58,174 nt of DNA from Akkermansia muciniphila (GTDB lineage: Bacteria; Verrucomicrobiota; Verrucomicrobiia; Verrucomicrobiales; Akkermansiaceae), in the NCBI GenBank assembly GCA_945883695.1, contig CAMCYK010000007.1, positions 1 through 58,174 of the forward strand. The letters are read 5' to 3'. How positions within the stretch are numbered: position 1 is the stretch's first letter; every line of letters begins with the position of its first letter. Below the pieces are notes generated by a model. The model saw only the letters and a list, made by a program, of their open reading frames with translations, was not told the DNA's origin and did not search any database. The position numbers and the translations under genes were made by a program. Positions 2,556 through 54,580 of this stretch are shown in pieces.

Positions 2556-3461
2556 TCAAGCCCTGACCAACGATCGATCCGGCTCCAGTCCGCGGCCCTC
2601 GATCTCCAGGCGGTCGGGGAAACATTTCACCACCGCGTAAGCCGTCTCCTTCTCGGTCTCGACCATGCCCTTGAGGTTCACGTAATGGCAATGCCCCTGC
2701 CTGCCGTAGTTCCCCCTGTGGTTGTGGCCGTTCATGTAGGCGGCGACGTGCGGGTGCTTTGCGATGAGGGAGACGATATCCGCCGCATCGAGGAGGTTGG
2801 GCGGGACGGCGGGGAAAACAGGGTAATGGTTGAGGACAATCACCCTCTGGCTTGCCCGCGCGGCGGCATCGAGTTCCTTCTCCAACCAAGCCATCTGTTC
2901 CGCGCCGATGGCGGTGTCGCCCGCGGGTTCGAAGCGGCGCCCGGTGCGCACCGCCATTTCCATCAGAGCTGCCTTCGCGGCGGCAGCGCGGGGATCCCCG
3001 GCGGGGTGTCGCCACGCGGCGCCGTCCGTGCCGTCGAGGAAGACGAAGCGCCAGCCTTTCACGACCATGGAGTAATAGGGCTCCTTCATGCCGAGGGCCG
3101 CGAGCACCTCGCCCTTGTCCGCATCGGCGACCGAAAAATCGTGGTTGCCGAGGATCGGGTGGTGGGGCGATACCAGCTTTGCGTAGATTTCCATGACGGG
3201 ACGGAAACTCGCGAAATCGAGGTCGATCAGATCGCCAAGTGTGGCGGTGAAATCCACCGGGCGCGTGTTGAGGTCGGCCACCGCAGCCTCAAGCTTGGCG
3301 AGCGAGTTGCGATAGAAACGGGTGGCAATGGTTTCCGCGTCTGCGTATTGCGGGTCCGCGATGACCCCGAAGGTGAGATCCGGTTCGGCGGCGGGGGCGG
3401 CGGAGGCTTTCCCCGCGAGGACGAGGGGCAGCGTAAACCTGATGAAAGTCCTGCGGTTCAT
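2556..3461 (-). CDS. Calcineurin-like metallophosphoesterase, ADPRM-like
   Basis: This is a dinuclear metal phosphoesterase. The start at 3461 gives MNRRTFIRFTLPLVLAGKASA, a twin-arginine-like export signal; an upstream in-frame Met at 3482 would bury it. Metal-site motifs appear in the order of the fold: DPQYAD (36-41, the usual DxH with Gln for His), GDLID (76-80), GNHD (105-108), NHYP (211-214) and GHNH (245-248). The FGVIADPQYAD block resembles manganese-dependent ADP-ribose/CDP-alcohol diphosphatases, so a nucleotide-diphosphate substrate is a reasonable guess. Length 301 aa fits. It lies upstream of the esterase on the same strand, and the two could be co-transcribed. Confidence 0.85.
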   Translation of the reverse strand: MNRRTFIRFTLPLVLAGKASAAPAAEPDLTFGVIADPQYADAETIATRFYRNSLAKLEAAVADLNTRPVDFTATLGDLIDLDFASFRPVMEIYAKLVSPHHPILGNHDFSVADADKGEVLAALGMKEPYYSMVVKGWRFVFLDGTDGAAWRHPAGDPRAAAAKAALMEMAVRTGRRFEPAGDTAIGAEQMAWLEKELDAAARASQRVIVLNHYPVFPAVPPNLLDAADIVSLIAKHPHVAAYMNGHNHRGNYGRQGHCHYVNLKGMVETEKETAYAVVKCFPDRLEIEGRGLEPDRSLVRA

Positions 3462-36390: not shown

Positions 36391-36438
36391 CCAGCCCGCT
36401 TCAGCCCGCTTCAGCCCGCTTCAGCCCGCTTCAGCCCG
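36391..36438. repeat. Tandem 10-bp repeat, about five copies
   Basis: TCAGCCCGCT is repeated head to tail from 36401 to 36430, with a near copy before (CCAGCCCGCT) and a partial one after (TCAGCCCG). The array lies between the GYF-PH gene and the next gene on the left-reading strand. It is a short-period slippage-prone array and may vary between strains. Confidence 0.85.
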
Positions 36439-42803: not shown

Positions 42804-44231
42804 ATGAAGCGACTTCCTCTTCTCGCCCTCGCCCTGTTCACCGGCTGCGACAAGCAACCCTACCCGCCGAACCCGCGCGGCCTCGAAATCCTCGCACCCG
42901 GTGCTTATCCGAAACCCGCGGCAGCGGCGCCGGAAGCAACCCCGGCCGCGGAAGCTGGCGCGGCCGCAACACCCGCGGCTCCGGCGGCGCCCGCAACCCC
43001 GGCGGCTCCAGCCCCTCCGGCAACCCCGCCCGCCCCGGCAACCCCGCCCGCCCCGGCAACCCCACCGGCTCCGGCGACCCCACCCGCTCCGGCGACCCCA
43101 CCCGCTCCGGCGACCCCACCGGTTCCTTCCTCCGCCACCACGCCGCCGATCGAGGCCACCGCGGCCACCGGCGAACTCCCAAGCCCGCAGTACTTGCCGG
43201 TCACCGAACAGATTCACGCCCGGGTGCTGGAAAAGTCCGGCACCCCGCCCGACGCTGCGGCGATGGCGGCCTACACCGAGACCGTCCCCGCCGCCAAGGA
43301 CGCCCCCTTCGACCTCGTCCCGCTCCCCGGCGGCGAGGTCACCCTCGGCTCCCCCGCGACGGAAGCCGGCCGCCAGGAAAACGAAAGCCCGCAGGTCAAG
43401 GTCAGCGTCGACCCCTTCTGGATCGGCAAGTGCGAGATGACGTGGGACGTTTACCGCGCCTTCATGGAGAACGGCAAGGCCCGCAACAAGGACGGCACCC
43501 TCAACCGCGACTCCGACAACCGGACCCCGGAACCGCCCGTGGCGCTGGAAGGCGAAACCCTGGTCGATGTCGTCAGCCAGCCGACCCCGCCCTACGTGCC
43601 GATGCATTTCGAGATGGGCGAGGGCTACGGCGCCGGCTGGCCGGCCATCGCGATGACCCACCACGCCGCCAGCAAGTTCTGCGAATGGCTCAGCGCCCAG
43701 ACCGGCCACTACTACCGCCTGCCGACCGAAGCCGAGTGGGAATACGCCTGCCGCGCCGGCACCACCACCGCCTGGTCCTTCGGCGACGATCCCGCGCAAC
43801 TCGCCGACCACGCCTGGTTCATGGTCAACGCCGAATACACCTATCAGCAGGTCGGCCAGAAAAAGCCGAATCCCTGGGGCCTCCATGACATGCACGGCAA
43901 CGTCGCCGAATGGTGTCTCGACGCCTATCTGCCCGACGCCTTCGCGAAGTGGGAAAACGGCGCGAAAAACCCCTGGCATCCGGCGCTCAGCCGCTACCCG
44001 CACGTCACCCGCGGCGGCCACTTTTACGAAGGCGGTCCGGAGACCCTGCGCTCCGCCGCCCGCGTGCCGTCGGACCCGGCGTGGAAGGCCATCGACCCGC
44101 AGAACCCGAAGTCAATCTGGTATCTCACCAGTTGCCAGTTCATCGGCTTCCGCGTCGTCCGCCCGCTCGCCGTGCCCGACGTGAAGGAGATGCACCGGAC
44201 GTGGAACACCGGCCCCGGGCCGACCGAATAA
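42804..44231 (+). CDS. FGE/SUMF1-like lipoprotein with Pro-Ala-Thr repeat linker
   Basis: The protein has 475 aa. MKRLPLLALALFTGC carries a lipobox (Cys15), so it is lipid-anchored. Residues 35-110 are a low-complexity Ala/Pro/Thr linker. The C-terminal 300 residues are a formylglycine-generating-enzyme-like domain: VPLPGGEVTLGSPATEAGRQENESPQVKVSVDPFWIGKCEMTWDVYRAFM, LPTEAEWEYACRAGTTTAWSFGDD, NPWGLHDMHGNVAEWCLD and FIGFRVVRPLA. Most bacterial proteins of this family do not modify sulfatases, and no sulfatase gene is in the window, so an activating or structural role is possible. The linker probably spans periplasm or peptidoglycan. A hairpin element abuts the stop codon. Confidence 0.88.
   Translation: MKRLPLLALALFTGCDKQPYPPNPRGLEILAPGAYPKPAAAAPEATPAAEAGAAATPAAPAAPATPAAPAPPATPPAPATPPAPATPPAPATPPAPATPPAPATPPVPSSATTPPIEATAATGELPSPQYLPVTEQIHARVLEKSGTPPDAAAMAAYTETVPAAKDAPFDLVPLPGGEVTLGSPATEAGRQENESPQVKVSVDPFWIGKCEMTWDVYRAFMENGKARNKDGTLNRDSDNRTPEPPVALEGETLVDVVSQPTPPYVPMHFEMGEGYGAGWPAIAMTHHAASKFCEWLSAQTGHYYRLPTEAEWEYACRAGTTTAWSFGDDPAQLADHAWFMVNAEYTYQQVGQKKPNPWGLHDMHGNVAEWCLDAYLPDAFAKWENGAKNPWHPALSRYPHVTRGGHFYEGGPETLRSAARVPSDPAWKAIDPQNPKSIWYLTSCQFIGFRVVRPLAVPDVKEMHRTWNTGPGPTE
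43013..43128 (+). repeat. In-gene 18-bp tandem repeats encoding PPAPAT units
   Basis: About six copies of an 18-bp unit encode (P-P-A-P-A-T)n in the FGE-like lipoprotein linker. Two sub-variants, GCCCCGGCAACCCCG and GCTCCGGCGACCCCA, form separate blocks, which points to stepwise local duplication. Confidence 0.8.
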
Positions 44232-51872: not shown

Positions 51873-53087
51873 CTACCCCGGCTTCCGCCGCGGGCAGCGG
51901 CGGCGGATCTCCGTTTCGCGGGCCTCCGGCAGGCGCAGTTCGCGCCGCAGCTTCCATCCCCAGAAGGCGAGGATCGCGACCCACAGGATGGCGGCGTAGA
52001 GGAAATGGGTGACGCGGACTTTCGGCACGAATTCCGGAGTCAGGCGGGTCGCGGCGGTCAACAGGACCAGCACCCAGACGACGTGGAACCAGCGCAACGG
52101 CGAGGCGAGGCGGTCGTGGCGGTCGGCGTGGCCGAGAGTCACCCGGCTCGCCACCGCCAGCATCAGCAGGCCGGCCCCGCCGATGAACATCAGGTGCAGC
52201 ATCCCGGTGCGCAGCGGCCCGAACCACGCCGCCAGCAGCCAGCCGCCGGCGGCGCAGGGCAGGAACCAGCGCAGCGCGAGGCCGAGGCCGTTGACCTTTC
52301 CCCAGCCGACCAAACCCGGTACCGAGCACGCGAGGTAAGGCACCACCACCGCAGTCCGGACGATCATCCCGGCGCGGCCGCCGAAGCGGACCTCGATCCA
52401 GAAGCTGCCGATCACCGCCAGCCCGGCCGCGAGCGACGTGAAAAAGGCCCGCCGCCAGCCGGGCGGGATGCCATCGCCGTCTTCGAAGGCGTGCGGCGAT
52501 TTCCTGCCGAAGAAGCGCGGCAGCAGGTAGGGCGCGACCCCGATCACCGGCAGCCAGAGCAACCCTTGGAAATAGAGCAGCCGCCAGAACAGCCGGACCG
52601 GCGCGGTGAAGCCGAGGATCGGATCCATGCTCAGCGCGAAGCCCGCGAGCGCGGCCCCACCGAGGCCGAGCACCGCCACCGGCAGACCGGGCGGCGGCAC
52701 GTCACCGTCGCCGGTCAGCACCCGGAACAGCAGGCTGAGCAGCACGCCTGACAACCACAGCCCGGCCATCAGGTCGGCGGCCGGGATTGGGTGGAACGCC
52801 AGGCAGGCCATCATCGCGACGGCCATCGCCACGTGCCACAGGATCTCGAAACGGCACCACGGGTCCGCCCCGAGCAAGCGCGGGCCCGCGGTGCCGAGGA
52901 AGCCGGTGACAAAGCAGCCGCCGAATCCGATCACCATCCAGCGCGCGTGCGCCTCCAGCGGCCAAACCGTCGCCCAGCCCTGGAAATACACCGGCCACAG
53001 CAGCACGCCGATCGCCGACGCGAGCACCCCGAGCGGGAAGAACACCCGGAACGGTTCGGCGGCGCAGCGGTCGAGAAAGGCACTCAT
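51873..53087 (-). CDS. nnrS: NnrS family protein
   Basis: The protein has 404 aa and twelve hydrophobic segments, starting at ATG 53087. NnrS hallmarks are an N-terminal EPFRVFFPLGVLASAIGVLLWPVYF, then HARWMVIGFGGCFVTGFLGTAGPRLLG, a later WLPVIGVAPYLLPRFFGRKS and the conserved GPLRTGMLHLMFIGGAGLLMLAVASRVTLGHADR. NnrS is a haem- and copper-containing membrane protein of denitrifiers linked to tolerance of nitric oxide and related metal-nitrosyl stress. Placement upstream of nirK on the same strand fits that role. The C-terminal tail is Arg-rich and cytoplasmic. Confidence 0.92.
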   Translation of the reverse strand: MSAFLDRCAAEPFRVFFPLGVLASAIGVLLWPVYFQGWATVWPLEAHARWMVIGFGGCFVTGFLGTAGPRLLGADPWCRFEILWHVAMAVAMMACLAFHPIPAADLMAGLWLSGVLLSLLFRVLTGDGDVPPPGLPVAVLGLGGAALAGFALSMDPILGFTAPVRLFWRLLYFQGLLWLPVIGVAPYLLPRFFGRKSPHAFEDGDGIPPGWRRAFFTSLAAGLAVIGSFWIEVRFGGRAGMIVRTAVVVPYLACSVPGLVGWGKVNGLGLALRWFLPCAAGGWLLAAWFGPLRTGMLHLMFIGGAGLLMLAVASRVTLGHADRHDRLASPLRWFHVVWVLVLLTAATRLTPEFVPKVRVTHFLYAAILWVAILAFWGWKLRRELRLPEARETEIRRRCPRRKPG

Positions 53088-53105
53088 CTTGGTTCAGCAG
53101 AGACT

Positions 53106-53352
53106 ACCGCAGAGGTCCGGAGGTCGCGGAGGATCGCAGAGCAAGAATCCATCAGGATGGAGCAATGAGAACCACGGAATACGCGGAACACACGGAACTG
53201 GAAATGTGATTGGATTCGCTTAGAAGACCTCTGAAAAGAGAGCCCAGGGCTCCCCGACTTGCAAAGATTCCGTGCCTTCCGTGGTTCTGATCTCTTTTTG
53301 GGGCGATCGAACGAATTCTCCGCGCTCCTCCGCGAACTCGGCGTCTCTGCGG
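53106..53352. repeat. Composite inverted repeat of CGCAGAG- and CCACGGAA-type modules
   Basis: The left half has a module reading ACCGCAGAGGTCCGGAGGTC and on (53106-53142), then ACCACGGAATACGCGGAACA and on (53171-53198). The right half is the mirror: on the other strand it reads ACCGCAGAGACGCCGAGTTC and on (53352-53316), then AACCACGGAAGGCACGGAAT (53287-53266). Each module is a degenerate repeat of about 9-10 bp. The whole fills the gap between nnrS and the radical SAM gene as an imperfect giant palindrome. Confidence 0.7.
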
Positions 53353-53365
53353 TCGAGGCATCGAT

Positions 53366-54580
53366 CTAACACGCTGCCAGCTCCGCACCGATCTCTTCCT
53401 CGGAGAGGTAACAGCCGGGATCGCTGCCCCACAGGTCGCCGTTGGCGAAGGCGGCGCGGGTGCGGAAGCCGCCGCCACAGAGCTTGAACCACTGGCAGCC
53501 GGCGCAGCGGCCGTGCATGCGGGCCTTGCGCTGGTCCGCCGACAGCAAGCCGACCGAGCGGATCTCGTCGAGCACCGGCGCGGCGAGTTCGTTGCCACCT
53601 TCCCAGATTTTCGAGAAGGCCATCCGCTTGACATTGCCGAGCTGCACGTCCTGCCAGAACTGGTCGGGGTGGACATTGCCCTGGGTGTCGATGTTCGCGA
53701 TCCCCCGCCCCGAGCTGTTCGCACCGCCGCCGTTCCAACCTAACAGCTGCCTGGCCTGCTCGAGGTTCGGGTGATTCTCGCGTTCCATCCGGACCAGCAG
53801 GTAGGCGCCGTCGGCCGGCTGGGTGACGGTCAGCACCTCGCGGTCGATCCCCTTCGCGTGCCAGTCCTCGACCCGTGCGAGCAGCGTGTCGATCGCCCCG
53901 CGCGCGGCTTCCGGCTCCAGCACCTGCATCAAGCTGCCGCGACCGGCGGGCACGAGATGATAAAAGCAGACGCGCTGGATTTCCTTCTCCTCGATGAAAT
54001 CGAGGATGCGTTCGATGTTCTCGACGTTGTGGCGGGTCAAGGTCAGCCGCAGGCCGGTCTTCTGGCCGACCTGGTGGCAGTTGCGGAAACCGCGCACGGC
54101 GGAGTCGAAGGCACCCGCCTTGCCGCGGAACTGGTCGTGGATTTCACCGATGCCATCGAGCGAGATCCCGACGTAGGCGACGTTCGCCGCTTTCAACAGC
54201 GCTGCCTTCTCCGGCGTGATCAGTGTGCCATTGGTGGAGATCGTCAATTTCAGCCCGTGCTCCGTCGCGAGATCGACCAGATCAAAAAAGCGAGGATGAA
54301 TCAGCGGCTCGCCGCCGGAAAGCAGCAGCGAGGGGATCTTGTAGCCCGCGAGGTCCTCCACCACGGCCTGCATCTGCTCCCAGTTCAGCTCGCCGGGATA
54401 CTGCATCGCCATCGAGTCGGAGTAGCAATGGACGCAGCGCAGGTTGCAGGTGCGGGTGATGTTCCAGACCACGATCGGCCGCCGTTCGCGGGCGCTGTTC
54501 GCGGCGGCGTGGCCGTGGCCGTAGCGGAGGTTGTCGGCGGGCTGGGCCTGGCCGGTCCAGAGGCGGGTGAGATTGATCAT
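53366..54580 (-). CDS. Radical SAM/SPASM protein of the AhbC/NirJ type
   Basis: The protein has 404 aa from ATG 54580. The radical SAM cluster is Cys45, Cys49, Cys52 in TRTCNLRCVHCYS, followed by SLLLSGGEPLIHP (SAM-binding GGEP) and STNGTLI. The C-terminal SPASM region has RCAGCQWFKLCGGGFRTRAAFANGDLWGSDPGCYL with further cluster Cys residues. The start MINLTRLWTGQAQPADNLRYG resembles AhbC (12,18-didecarboxysirohaem deacetylase) and NirJ-type enzymes of the sirohaem branch to haem or haem d1. The nitrite reductase here is copper-type, so haem d1 is not expected. A haem route for NnrS or cytochromes, or an unrelated peptide modification, remain open. Its neighbours are nnrS and nirK on the same strand. 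Confidence 0.8.
   Translation of the reverse strand: MINLTRLWTGQAQPADNLRYGHGHAAANSARERRPIVVWNITRTCNLRCVHCYSDSMAMQYPGELNWEQMQAVVEDLAGYKIPSLLLSGGEPLIHPRFFDLVDLATEHGLKLTISTNGTLITPEKAALLKAANVAYVGISLDGIGEIHDQFRGKAGAFDSAVRGFRNCHQVGQKTGLRLTLTRHNVENIERILDFIEEKEIQRVCFYHLVPAGRGSLMQVLEPEAARGAIDTLLARVEDWHAKGIDREVLTVTQPADGAYLLVRMERENHPNLEQARQLLGWNGGGANSSGRGIANIDTQGNVHPDQFWQDVQLGNVKRMAFSKIWEGGNELAAPVLDEIRSVGLLSADQRKARMHGRCAGCQWFKLCGGGFRTRAAFANGDLWGSDPGCYLSEEEIGAELAAC

What the first reader, a model, noticed from the sequence alone, without database searches (positions are those of the whole stretch)
53106..53352. Giant composite palindrome built of two kinds of short-period repeats
Seen: CGCAGAG-type and CCACGGAA-type modules in the order A-B, then B-A on the other strand, with about 30 bp between A and B in both halves and nothing else in the gap. 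Each module has a 9-10-bp period, near the helical repeat. Such words occur in many environmental genomes without an agreed explanation. The mirrored composite order suggests a defined element with ends, not random drift.
Basis: partly seen in the sequence, partly recalled or inferred. Interest (0 to 1): 0.58.

Follow-up and report, generated by a model that had tools for sequence, protein, structure and literature searches.

The report
Nested gene-less repeats of nuclease elements
A mirrored pair of rhythmic DNA words in a Verrucomicrobia-type genome appears to be two nested, gene-less leftovers of small genetic elements that elsewhere enclose a Cas4-like nuclease gene, which could explain the puzzling short-period repeats seen in many environmental bacteria.

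Summary
The palindrome is real: outer CGCAGAG/CGCGGAG arms around inner CACGGAA arms, beyond chance. It is not one composite element: six other inward CACGGAA pairs in the genome lack the outer arms, and A-then-B juxtaposition is not enriched in 57 genomes (20 matches, reversed control 21). In 5 of 5 wide-spaced pairs from relatives the inner type encloses a GxxExxY (PD-(D/E)XK) gene. Of 72 GxxExxY genes, 60 are flanked by inverted tandem-word arms, against 0-5% in shifted windows and ordinary genes; in a wider scan, 50 of 57. Words differ between elements, agree within one, and track protein similarity. Both window arm types best match GxxExxY arms. Orthologous empty sites exist. A sister family, four-helix-bundle genes, has 7-bp arms like cyanobacterial STRRs. 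Best reading: nested, non-autonomous, REPIN-like derivatives of an undescribed GxxExxY element. Mobilisation by the nuclease is inferred; no target-site duplication was resolved.

The parts
53106..53141 (+). outer (A) left arm: ACCGCAGAG, CCGGAG, CGCGGAG, CGCAGAG words
   Evidence: best match among the GxxExxY and four-helix arm sets is L173 (G003 GxxExxY element), SW 56
53142..53169 (.). 28-bp gap between A and B arms
53170..53197 (+). inner (B) left arm AACCACGGAA-TACGCGGAA-CACACGGAA
   Evidence: best match is L143 (G003 GxxExxY element), SW 52
53198..53258 (.). B interior, no gene; interiors of other CACGGAA copies are shared between G000 and G010, the window's own interior is diverged
53259..53286 (-). 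inner (B) right arm; two intact words 53268-53286, third degenerate
53287..53317 (.). 31-bp gap between B and A arms
53318..53353 (-). outer (A) right arm
51873..53087 (-). flanking gene, NnrS family
53366..54580 (-). flanking gene, radical SAM / SPASM-like; the gap to its neighbour is short and element-free in four relatives' gene pairs

Best explanation
The window holds two nested, gene-less (non-autonomous) derivatives of a so far undescribed element type. Shown: a full element is one small gene, GxxExxY (TIGR04256 / PF13366, PD-(D/E)XK fold closest to Cas4), between two inverted arms, each usually three or four copies of a short word at 9-10 bp spacing. The word differs from element to element but is the same in both arms of one element and tracks the protein subtype. 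Inner window arms are of the CACGGAA type; outer arms of the CGCAGAG/CGCGGAG type. Inferred: the element's own nuclease binds its word array in both arms and moves the element as DNA, and gene-less pairs are carried in trans, the way REPINs are thought to depend on RAYTs. In the window a B element then landed inside a gene-less A element, or inserted into A whose gene was later lost.
For: Gene inside 5 of 5 wide-spaced CACGGAA pairs. GxxExxY genes in related genomes: 60 of 72 with up/down inverted match SW>=34, versus 3/67, 0/65 and 1/65 in shifted windows, 7.2% of 5112 mismatched pairs and 2 of 70 ordinary genes. Genome collection: 50 of 57 versus 3 of 48. Protein-arm Mantel r 0.456 (0 of 5000), 0.452 without same-locus copies (0 of 2000), 0.547 in the second set (0 of 2000). 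Word core between arms 449/483 identical, spacers 61/92: the word is kept better than the pairing. Presence/absence: empty orthologous sites for the L013 pair in 4 genomes and the L011 pair in 1; window gap element-free in 4 relatives' gene pairs and holding a different gene-less pair in a fifth. At one SPFH-like/ATPase-like gap, three genomes with 93-97% identical flanks carry GxxExxY genes only 53-66% identical, with different words. Fold: pLDDT 93.5, best PDB match 4ic1 SSO0001, E 3.5e-5, Z 9.7; PADLOC Cas4 models E 3e-4 to 7e-4. Window arms assigned to GxxExxY arms.
Against: No target-site duplication could be read; flanks of the empty sites are too diverged. The window's genome (92.6% complete) has 4 GxxExxY genes, none with CACGGAA arms, so trans-mobilisation there has no visible partner. 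Only 9 of 25 best CACGGAA sites (one per genome) have an inward partner; the rest are solo or direct arms. One-orientation runs of half-arms do not fit a simple two-ended transposon. 12 of 72 genes lack arms at the threshold. Three of four plasmid-borne GxxExxY genes examined show no clear arms. Protein-word correlation can come from joint descent as well as from recognition. Some SW>=34 matches are long diffuse alignments rather than clean word arms (for example L243, L266).
Confidence: 0.6

Rival explanations
1. RNA-level element: the arms work as a transcribed stem (as in 23S rRNA intervening sequences) that shields or excises the insert from operon mRNA, with the protein acting on RNA; DNA mobility is by other means.
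For: Genes sit in sense within operons: same strand as the upstream gene 63 of 73 and as the downstream gene 57 of 62 scorable flanks; with concordant flanks 37 sense to 1 antisense; four-helix 10 of 10. Window RNA fold z -4.75. The Coxiella IVS encodes an S23 protein and is excised by RNase III (PMC4990558, abstract).
Against: Between-arm identity is kept at word cores (449/483) more than at spacers (61/92), and copy number can differ between arms (5 versus 3 words in L011), which a stem would not favour. Sense bias can also reflect dependence on host promoters.
Confidence: 0.2
2. Regulatory repeats: arms are binding sites or mRNA-stability/translation-coupling elements (as proposed for cyanobacterial STRR and TAACTGA repeats) and the gene is an incidental neighbour.
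For: Published proposals for 7-bp repeats (PMC2670836 passage; PMC4679880 abstract). Many solo arms.
Against: The specific gene association (60/72 versus 2/70), empty sites, and word-protein covariation. Words vary within one genome without a common sequence.
Confidence: 0.12
3. The window feature is a single composite element A-B-B-A with its own ends.
For: Symmetric 28/31-bp gaps; two one-sided A-then-B juxtapositions in G006.
Against: Six other B pairs in the genome have no A; no enrichment of A-B juxtaposition; A-type arms occur alone around GxxExxY genes, e.g. L173, L140.
Confidence: 0.04
4. Chance or low-complexity drift.
For: Short words, intergenic.
Against: Shuffles 0-1 of 1000; recurrence with reversed-pattern control near zero.
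Confidence: 0.01

Closest known systems
REPIN-RAYT (Bertels and Rainey 2011, PMC3116915, abstract and outline read)
   Same: Dispersed inverted doublets with a spacer, singlets too, and a small gene family associated with the same sequences; gene-less copies look non-autonomous.
   Different: The protein is PD-(D/E)XK (PF13366), not a RAYT tyrosine transposase; arms are tandem words at 9-10 bp; several gene copies per genome, each with its own word.
MITEs / insertion sequences
   Same: Inverted ends, presence/absence polymorphism, gene-less derivatives.
   Different: No transposase found; no target-site duplication resolved; each end is a tandem-word array.
23S rRNA intervening sequences and S23/four-helix-bundle proteins (PMC4990558 abstract; PMC3936711 passages)
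   Same: The sister family found here (TIGR02436) uses this protein and also sits between inverted arms in operons, including cas operons.
   Different: The window is not in rRNA and its arm words are of the GxxExxY type; four-helix arms have period 7.
Cyanobacterial STRR heptamers and Beggiatoaceae TAACTGA repeats (PMC2670836 passage; PMC4679880 abstract and passages)
   Same: Short-period intergenic word arrays without an accepted origin.
   Different: 7-bp period, matching the four-helix class, not the window's 9-bp words. TAACTGA itself was not tested against four-helix genes here.

Membership tests
GxxExxY element (defined in this report) | inverted tandem-word arms of a GxxExxY word class | tested here: met
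   A best L173 SW 56, B best L143 SW 52; best four-helix arm 21 and 18
GxxExxY element (defined in this report) | GxxExxY gene between the arms | tested here: not met
   B interior is only 61 bp (53198-53258) while the matched gene part in full copies is about 340-350 bp; hence called a gene-less derivative
REPIN-RAYT | inverted doublets dispersed in one genome | tested here: met
   seven inward CACGGAA pairs in G000 including the window's, plus two unpaired
REPIN-RAYT | associated protein is a RAYT tyrosine transposase | tested here: not met
   5 of 5 enclosed proteins hit only TIGR04256 / PF13366
IS / MITE | terminal inverted repeats | tested here: met
IS / MITE | target-site duplication | tested here: inconclusive
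   empty sites found but flanks too diverged to read a duplication
IS / MITE | known transposase in the full-length partner | tested here: not met
   no transposase family in 5 enclosed proteins
23S rRNA intervening sequence | located in 23S rRNA | tested here: not met
   lies between NnrS and radical SAM genes; no Rfam match in 52900-53600
STRR / TAACTGA heptamer repeats | 7-bp period | tested here: not met
   GxxExxY arms peak at 9 and 10; four-helix arms at 7 and 14
Cas4 nucleases (for the GxxExxY protein) | PD-(D/E)XK core with E, D and E-x-K residues | tested here: met
   E29 and K81 invariant, D69 and E79 at least 90% in 37 sequences; fold match 4ic1 Z 9.7; that these residues are catalytic is inference
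Cas4 nucleases (for the GxxExxY protein) | Fe-S cluster cysteines (recalled feature) | not tested
   not examined
Integron attC sites | attC core boxes and linked integrase | not tested
   considered for the one-orientation runs in G025 only

The most novel reading that the evidence does not exclude
GxxExxY and four-helix-bundle proteins define two parallel classes of minimal mobile elements in which one protein of roughly 105-125 residues recognises a self-specific tandem word (9-10 bp and 7 bp period) in both inverted arms. Protein and word diversify together, and solo arms, gene-less pairs and nested copies of these elements account for much of the unexplained short-period repeat DNA (CACGGAA, CACGAATGGA, CGCAGAT, ACAGGATTA, STRR-like heptamers) in environmental bacteria.
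Probability: 0.5. Interest if true: 0.92.

Novelty: new variant of a known kind. Interest (0 to 1): 0.78.

Why it matters
Short-period intergenic words (STRR, TAACTGA and the 9-bp words seen here) have been reported without an accepted origin; the TAACTGA paper states that no transmission mechanism is evident (PMC4679880 abstract). Tying such words to two specific, widespread but uncharacterised protein families makes the question directly testable by binding, cleavage and mobility assays. It would also add a Cas4-like nuclease as the sole protein of a mobile element and give a natural set of protein/DNA-word pairs that have diversified together.

Tried and rejected
Rejected: the single-composite reading; chance; a known RNA family (no match up to E 1 in 701 bases); a phage origin of the gene (0 of 50,697 phage records; 8 of 72,556 plasmids). 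The CGCAGAG tandem pattern itself is not enriched in the window's genome (125 matches versus 106 for the reversed control; none at the longer pattern), so A is rare there.

Led nowhere: target-site duplication. Sequence search of solved structures with alignment A1 gave 0 hits. Literature: GxxExxY is named in 2 papers (one passage of each read, neither on arms); six arm words occur in 0 papers; family accessions in 2 papers (listing only); other searches. The library is open-access PubMed Central only, so 'not in print' is limited to that.

Caveats on counts: and one search examined 72 GxxExxY loci, not every match. One of the 23 elements is a duplicate (L110 = L234). One search used 37 of 64 loci. 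Orientation counts use a longest-ORF rule that left many flanks ambiguous, and the window control is small (19 of 34 adjacent pairs on the same strand). One search holds up to ten elements of one locus; one search repeats the test without nine of them. In one search the minus-strand loci brought by search were not flipped, which does not change the symmetric score; later calls corrected it.

The idea to test TIGR02436 and TIGR04256 genes came from recall, before any call.

Full report
What is there. The 278-bp gap between an NnrS gene (51873-53087, minus) and a radical SAM gene (53366-54580, minus) holds two nested inverted arm pairs. The outer pair (A, 53106-53141 / 53318-53353) is made of CGCAGAG/CGCGGAG words. 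The inner pair (B, 53170-53197 / 53259-53286) is made of CACGGAA words at 9 bp, the third right-hand word being degenerate. Against 1000 dinucleotide shuffles: outer 0, inner 1, whole 0.

The composite is not the unit. The same genome has six further inward CACGGAA pairs, on contigs C2, C16, C38, C45, C53 and C105, and unpaired arms on C4 and C103; none of the pairs has A arms. The C16, C105 and C103 copies share an interior with each other and with a copy in genome G010. A search for A-then-B juxtaposition in 57 genomes gave 20 matches and the reversed control 21; only the window and two one-sided places in G006 show A arms by eye. In relatives of the window's gene pair, four gaps are short and free of arms and one (G013) holds a different gene-less pair with CGCCAAG words.

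The gene that belongs to the arms. In one search five CACGGAA pairs were about 440 bp apart. All 5 of 5 enclose one small gene, and all five proteins match only TIGR04256 GxxExxY and PF13366 PDDEXK_3. I then turned the test round. GxxExxY genes were found in 45 of 57 related genomes. In the 72 that I examined, the 300 bp before the gene and the reverse complement of the 300 bp after it match at SW>=34 in 60; shifted windows gave 3 of 67, 0 of 65 and 1 of 65, and up/down pairs from different genes 7.2% of 5112. At the looser cut of 28 the counts are 68 of 72 and 17 of 68. Seventy ordinary predicted genes of the window and ten other loci of its genome gave 2 at SW>=34. In a scan of a genome collection, 50 of 57 loci with enough flank had arms, against 3 of 48 shifted windows; the record titles name Verrucomicrobia, Kiritimatiellae, Lentisphaerae, Planctomycetes, desulfobacteria, Acidobacteria and others.

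Word diversity. Arms are tandem words with mean autocorrelation peaks at 9 and 10 bp. The word differs between elements but both arms of one element agree: in 34 of 72 cases no other downstream arm matches as well as the own one. Protein similarity predicts word similarity: r 0.456, 0 of 5000 permutations; 0.452 without copies at one shared locus and 0.547 in the second set, 0 of 2000 each. In 23 period-9 elements the arms agree at 449 of 483 core positions and 61 of 92 spacer positions. Both window arm types find their best match among GxxExxY arms (L173 and L143, both genome G003), far above the best four-helix arm.

Mobility evidence. The CACGGAA pair between two genes on contig C53 is absent from G007, G008, G011 and G012, and the C38 pair is absent from G007; the C45 pair is shared with G010. 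At the gap between an SPFH-like gene and an ATPase-like gene (names from reading the translations, not from a family call), 10 of 14 genomes examined carry a GxxExxY element, of several protein and word types; in three genomes with flanks 93-97% identical the proteins are only 53-66% identical. No target-site duplication could be read. Genes lie in sense in operons: 63 of 73 upstream and 57 of 62 downstream scorable neighbours on the same strand, and 37 sense to 1 antisense where both neighbours agree.

The protein. A model (pLDDT 93.5) matches SSO0001 (4ic1; a Cas4 protein by recall) best, Foldseek E 3.5e-5, Z 9.7, then lambda exonuclease and many PD-(D/E)XK folds; Holliday junction resolvase Hjc is at Z 6.6. 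PADLOC Cas4 models match weakly. E29, D69, E79 and K81 are conserved.

A sister class. Four-helix-bundle genes (TIGR02436), the protein of 23S rRNA intervening sequences, show the same layout with period-7 words: 25 of 30 loci, control 1 of 30. On cyanobacterial plasmids, 10 examined copies of the 28 records found all show heptamer arms by eye (scores 30-80), three of them inside cas operons. STRR repeats are described as usually 7-bp repeats of unknown function able to form hairpins (PMC2670836, one passage), and 23S_rRNA_IVP genes in cas loci were noted before (PMC3936711, passages); I found no paper in this library joining the two.

Mechanism. Shown: the arms, their association with the gene, covariation with the protein, dispersal, empty sites. 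Inferred: the protein binds the words, cuts DNA, and moves gene-less pairs in trans. Not explained: solo arms (16 of 25 best sites), one-orientation runs of half-arms, and the lack of a CACGGAA-armed gene in the window's own 92.6% complete genome.

Verdict. The window palindrome is two nested gene-less derivatives of GxxExxY elements. It works like a REPIN, with an unrelated partner protein, and is not a member of that family.

Noticed in passing
L112, L113 (G025 C2:297801-337800), L114 (G012 C156), L119 (G009): Runs of half-arms of several word families, nearly all in one orientation, over up to about 100 kb (G025 21 forward, 3 reverse), mostly with no inverted partner. Unexplained.
   Followed up: partly
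L128, L136, L170, L186, L286: Some GxxExxY genes have a complete gene-less hairpin on each side rather than a single arm, as if two gene-less copies bracket the gene.
   Followed up: no
L329, L333, L335: Four-helix-bundle genes with heptamer arms lie inside cas operons (cas10/cmr3 and twice cas6/cas4) on cyanobacterial plasmids.
   Followed up: partly
L222 1290-1560: In the window's genome the right arm and the start of the ATPase-like gene are duplicated in tandem at the SPFH/ATPase gap; real or assembly.
   Followed up: no
L014 about 3330-3360 (contig C105): A separate repeat (around GCGGCGGTCATAGACGCGCCGCTACA) with dozens of matches in G010 and G007.
   Followed up: no
window 36392-36438 and 42916-43120: Perfect 10-bp tandem array (CAGCCCGCTT x4.7) and a long 18-bp tandem array inside an ORF.
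   Followed up: no
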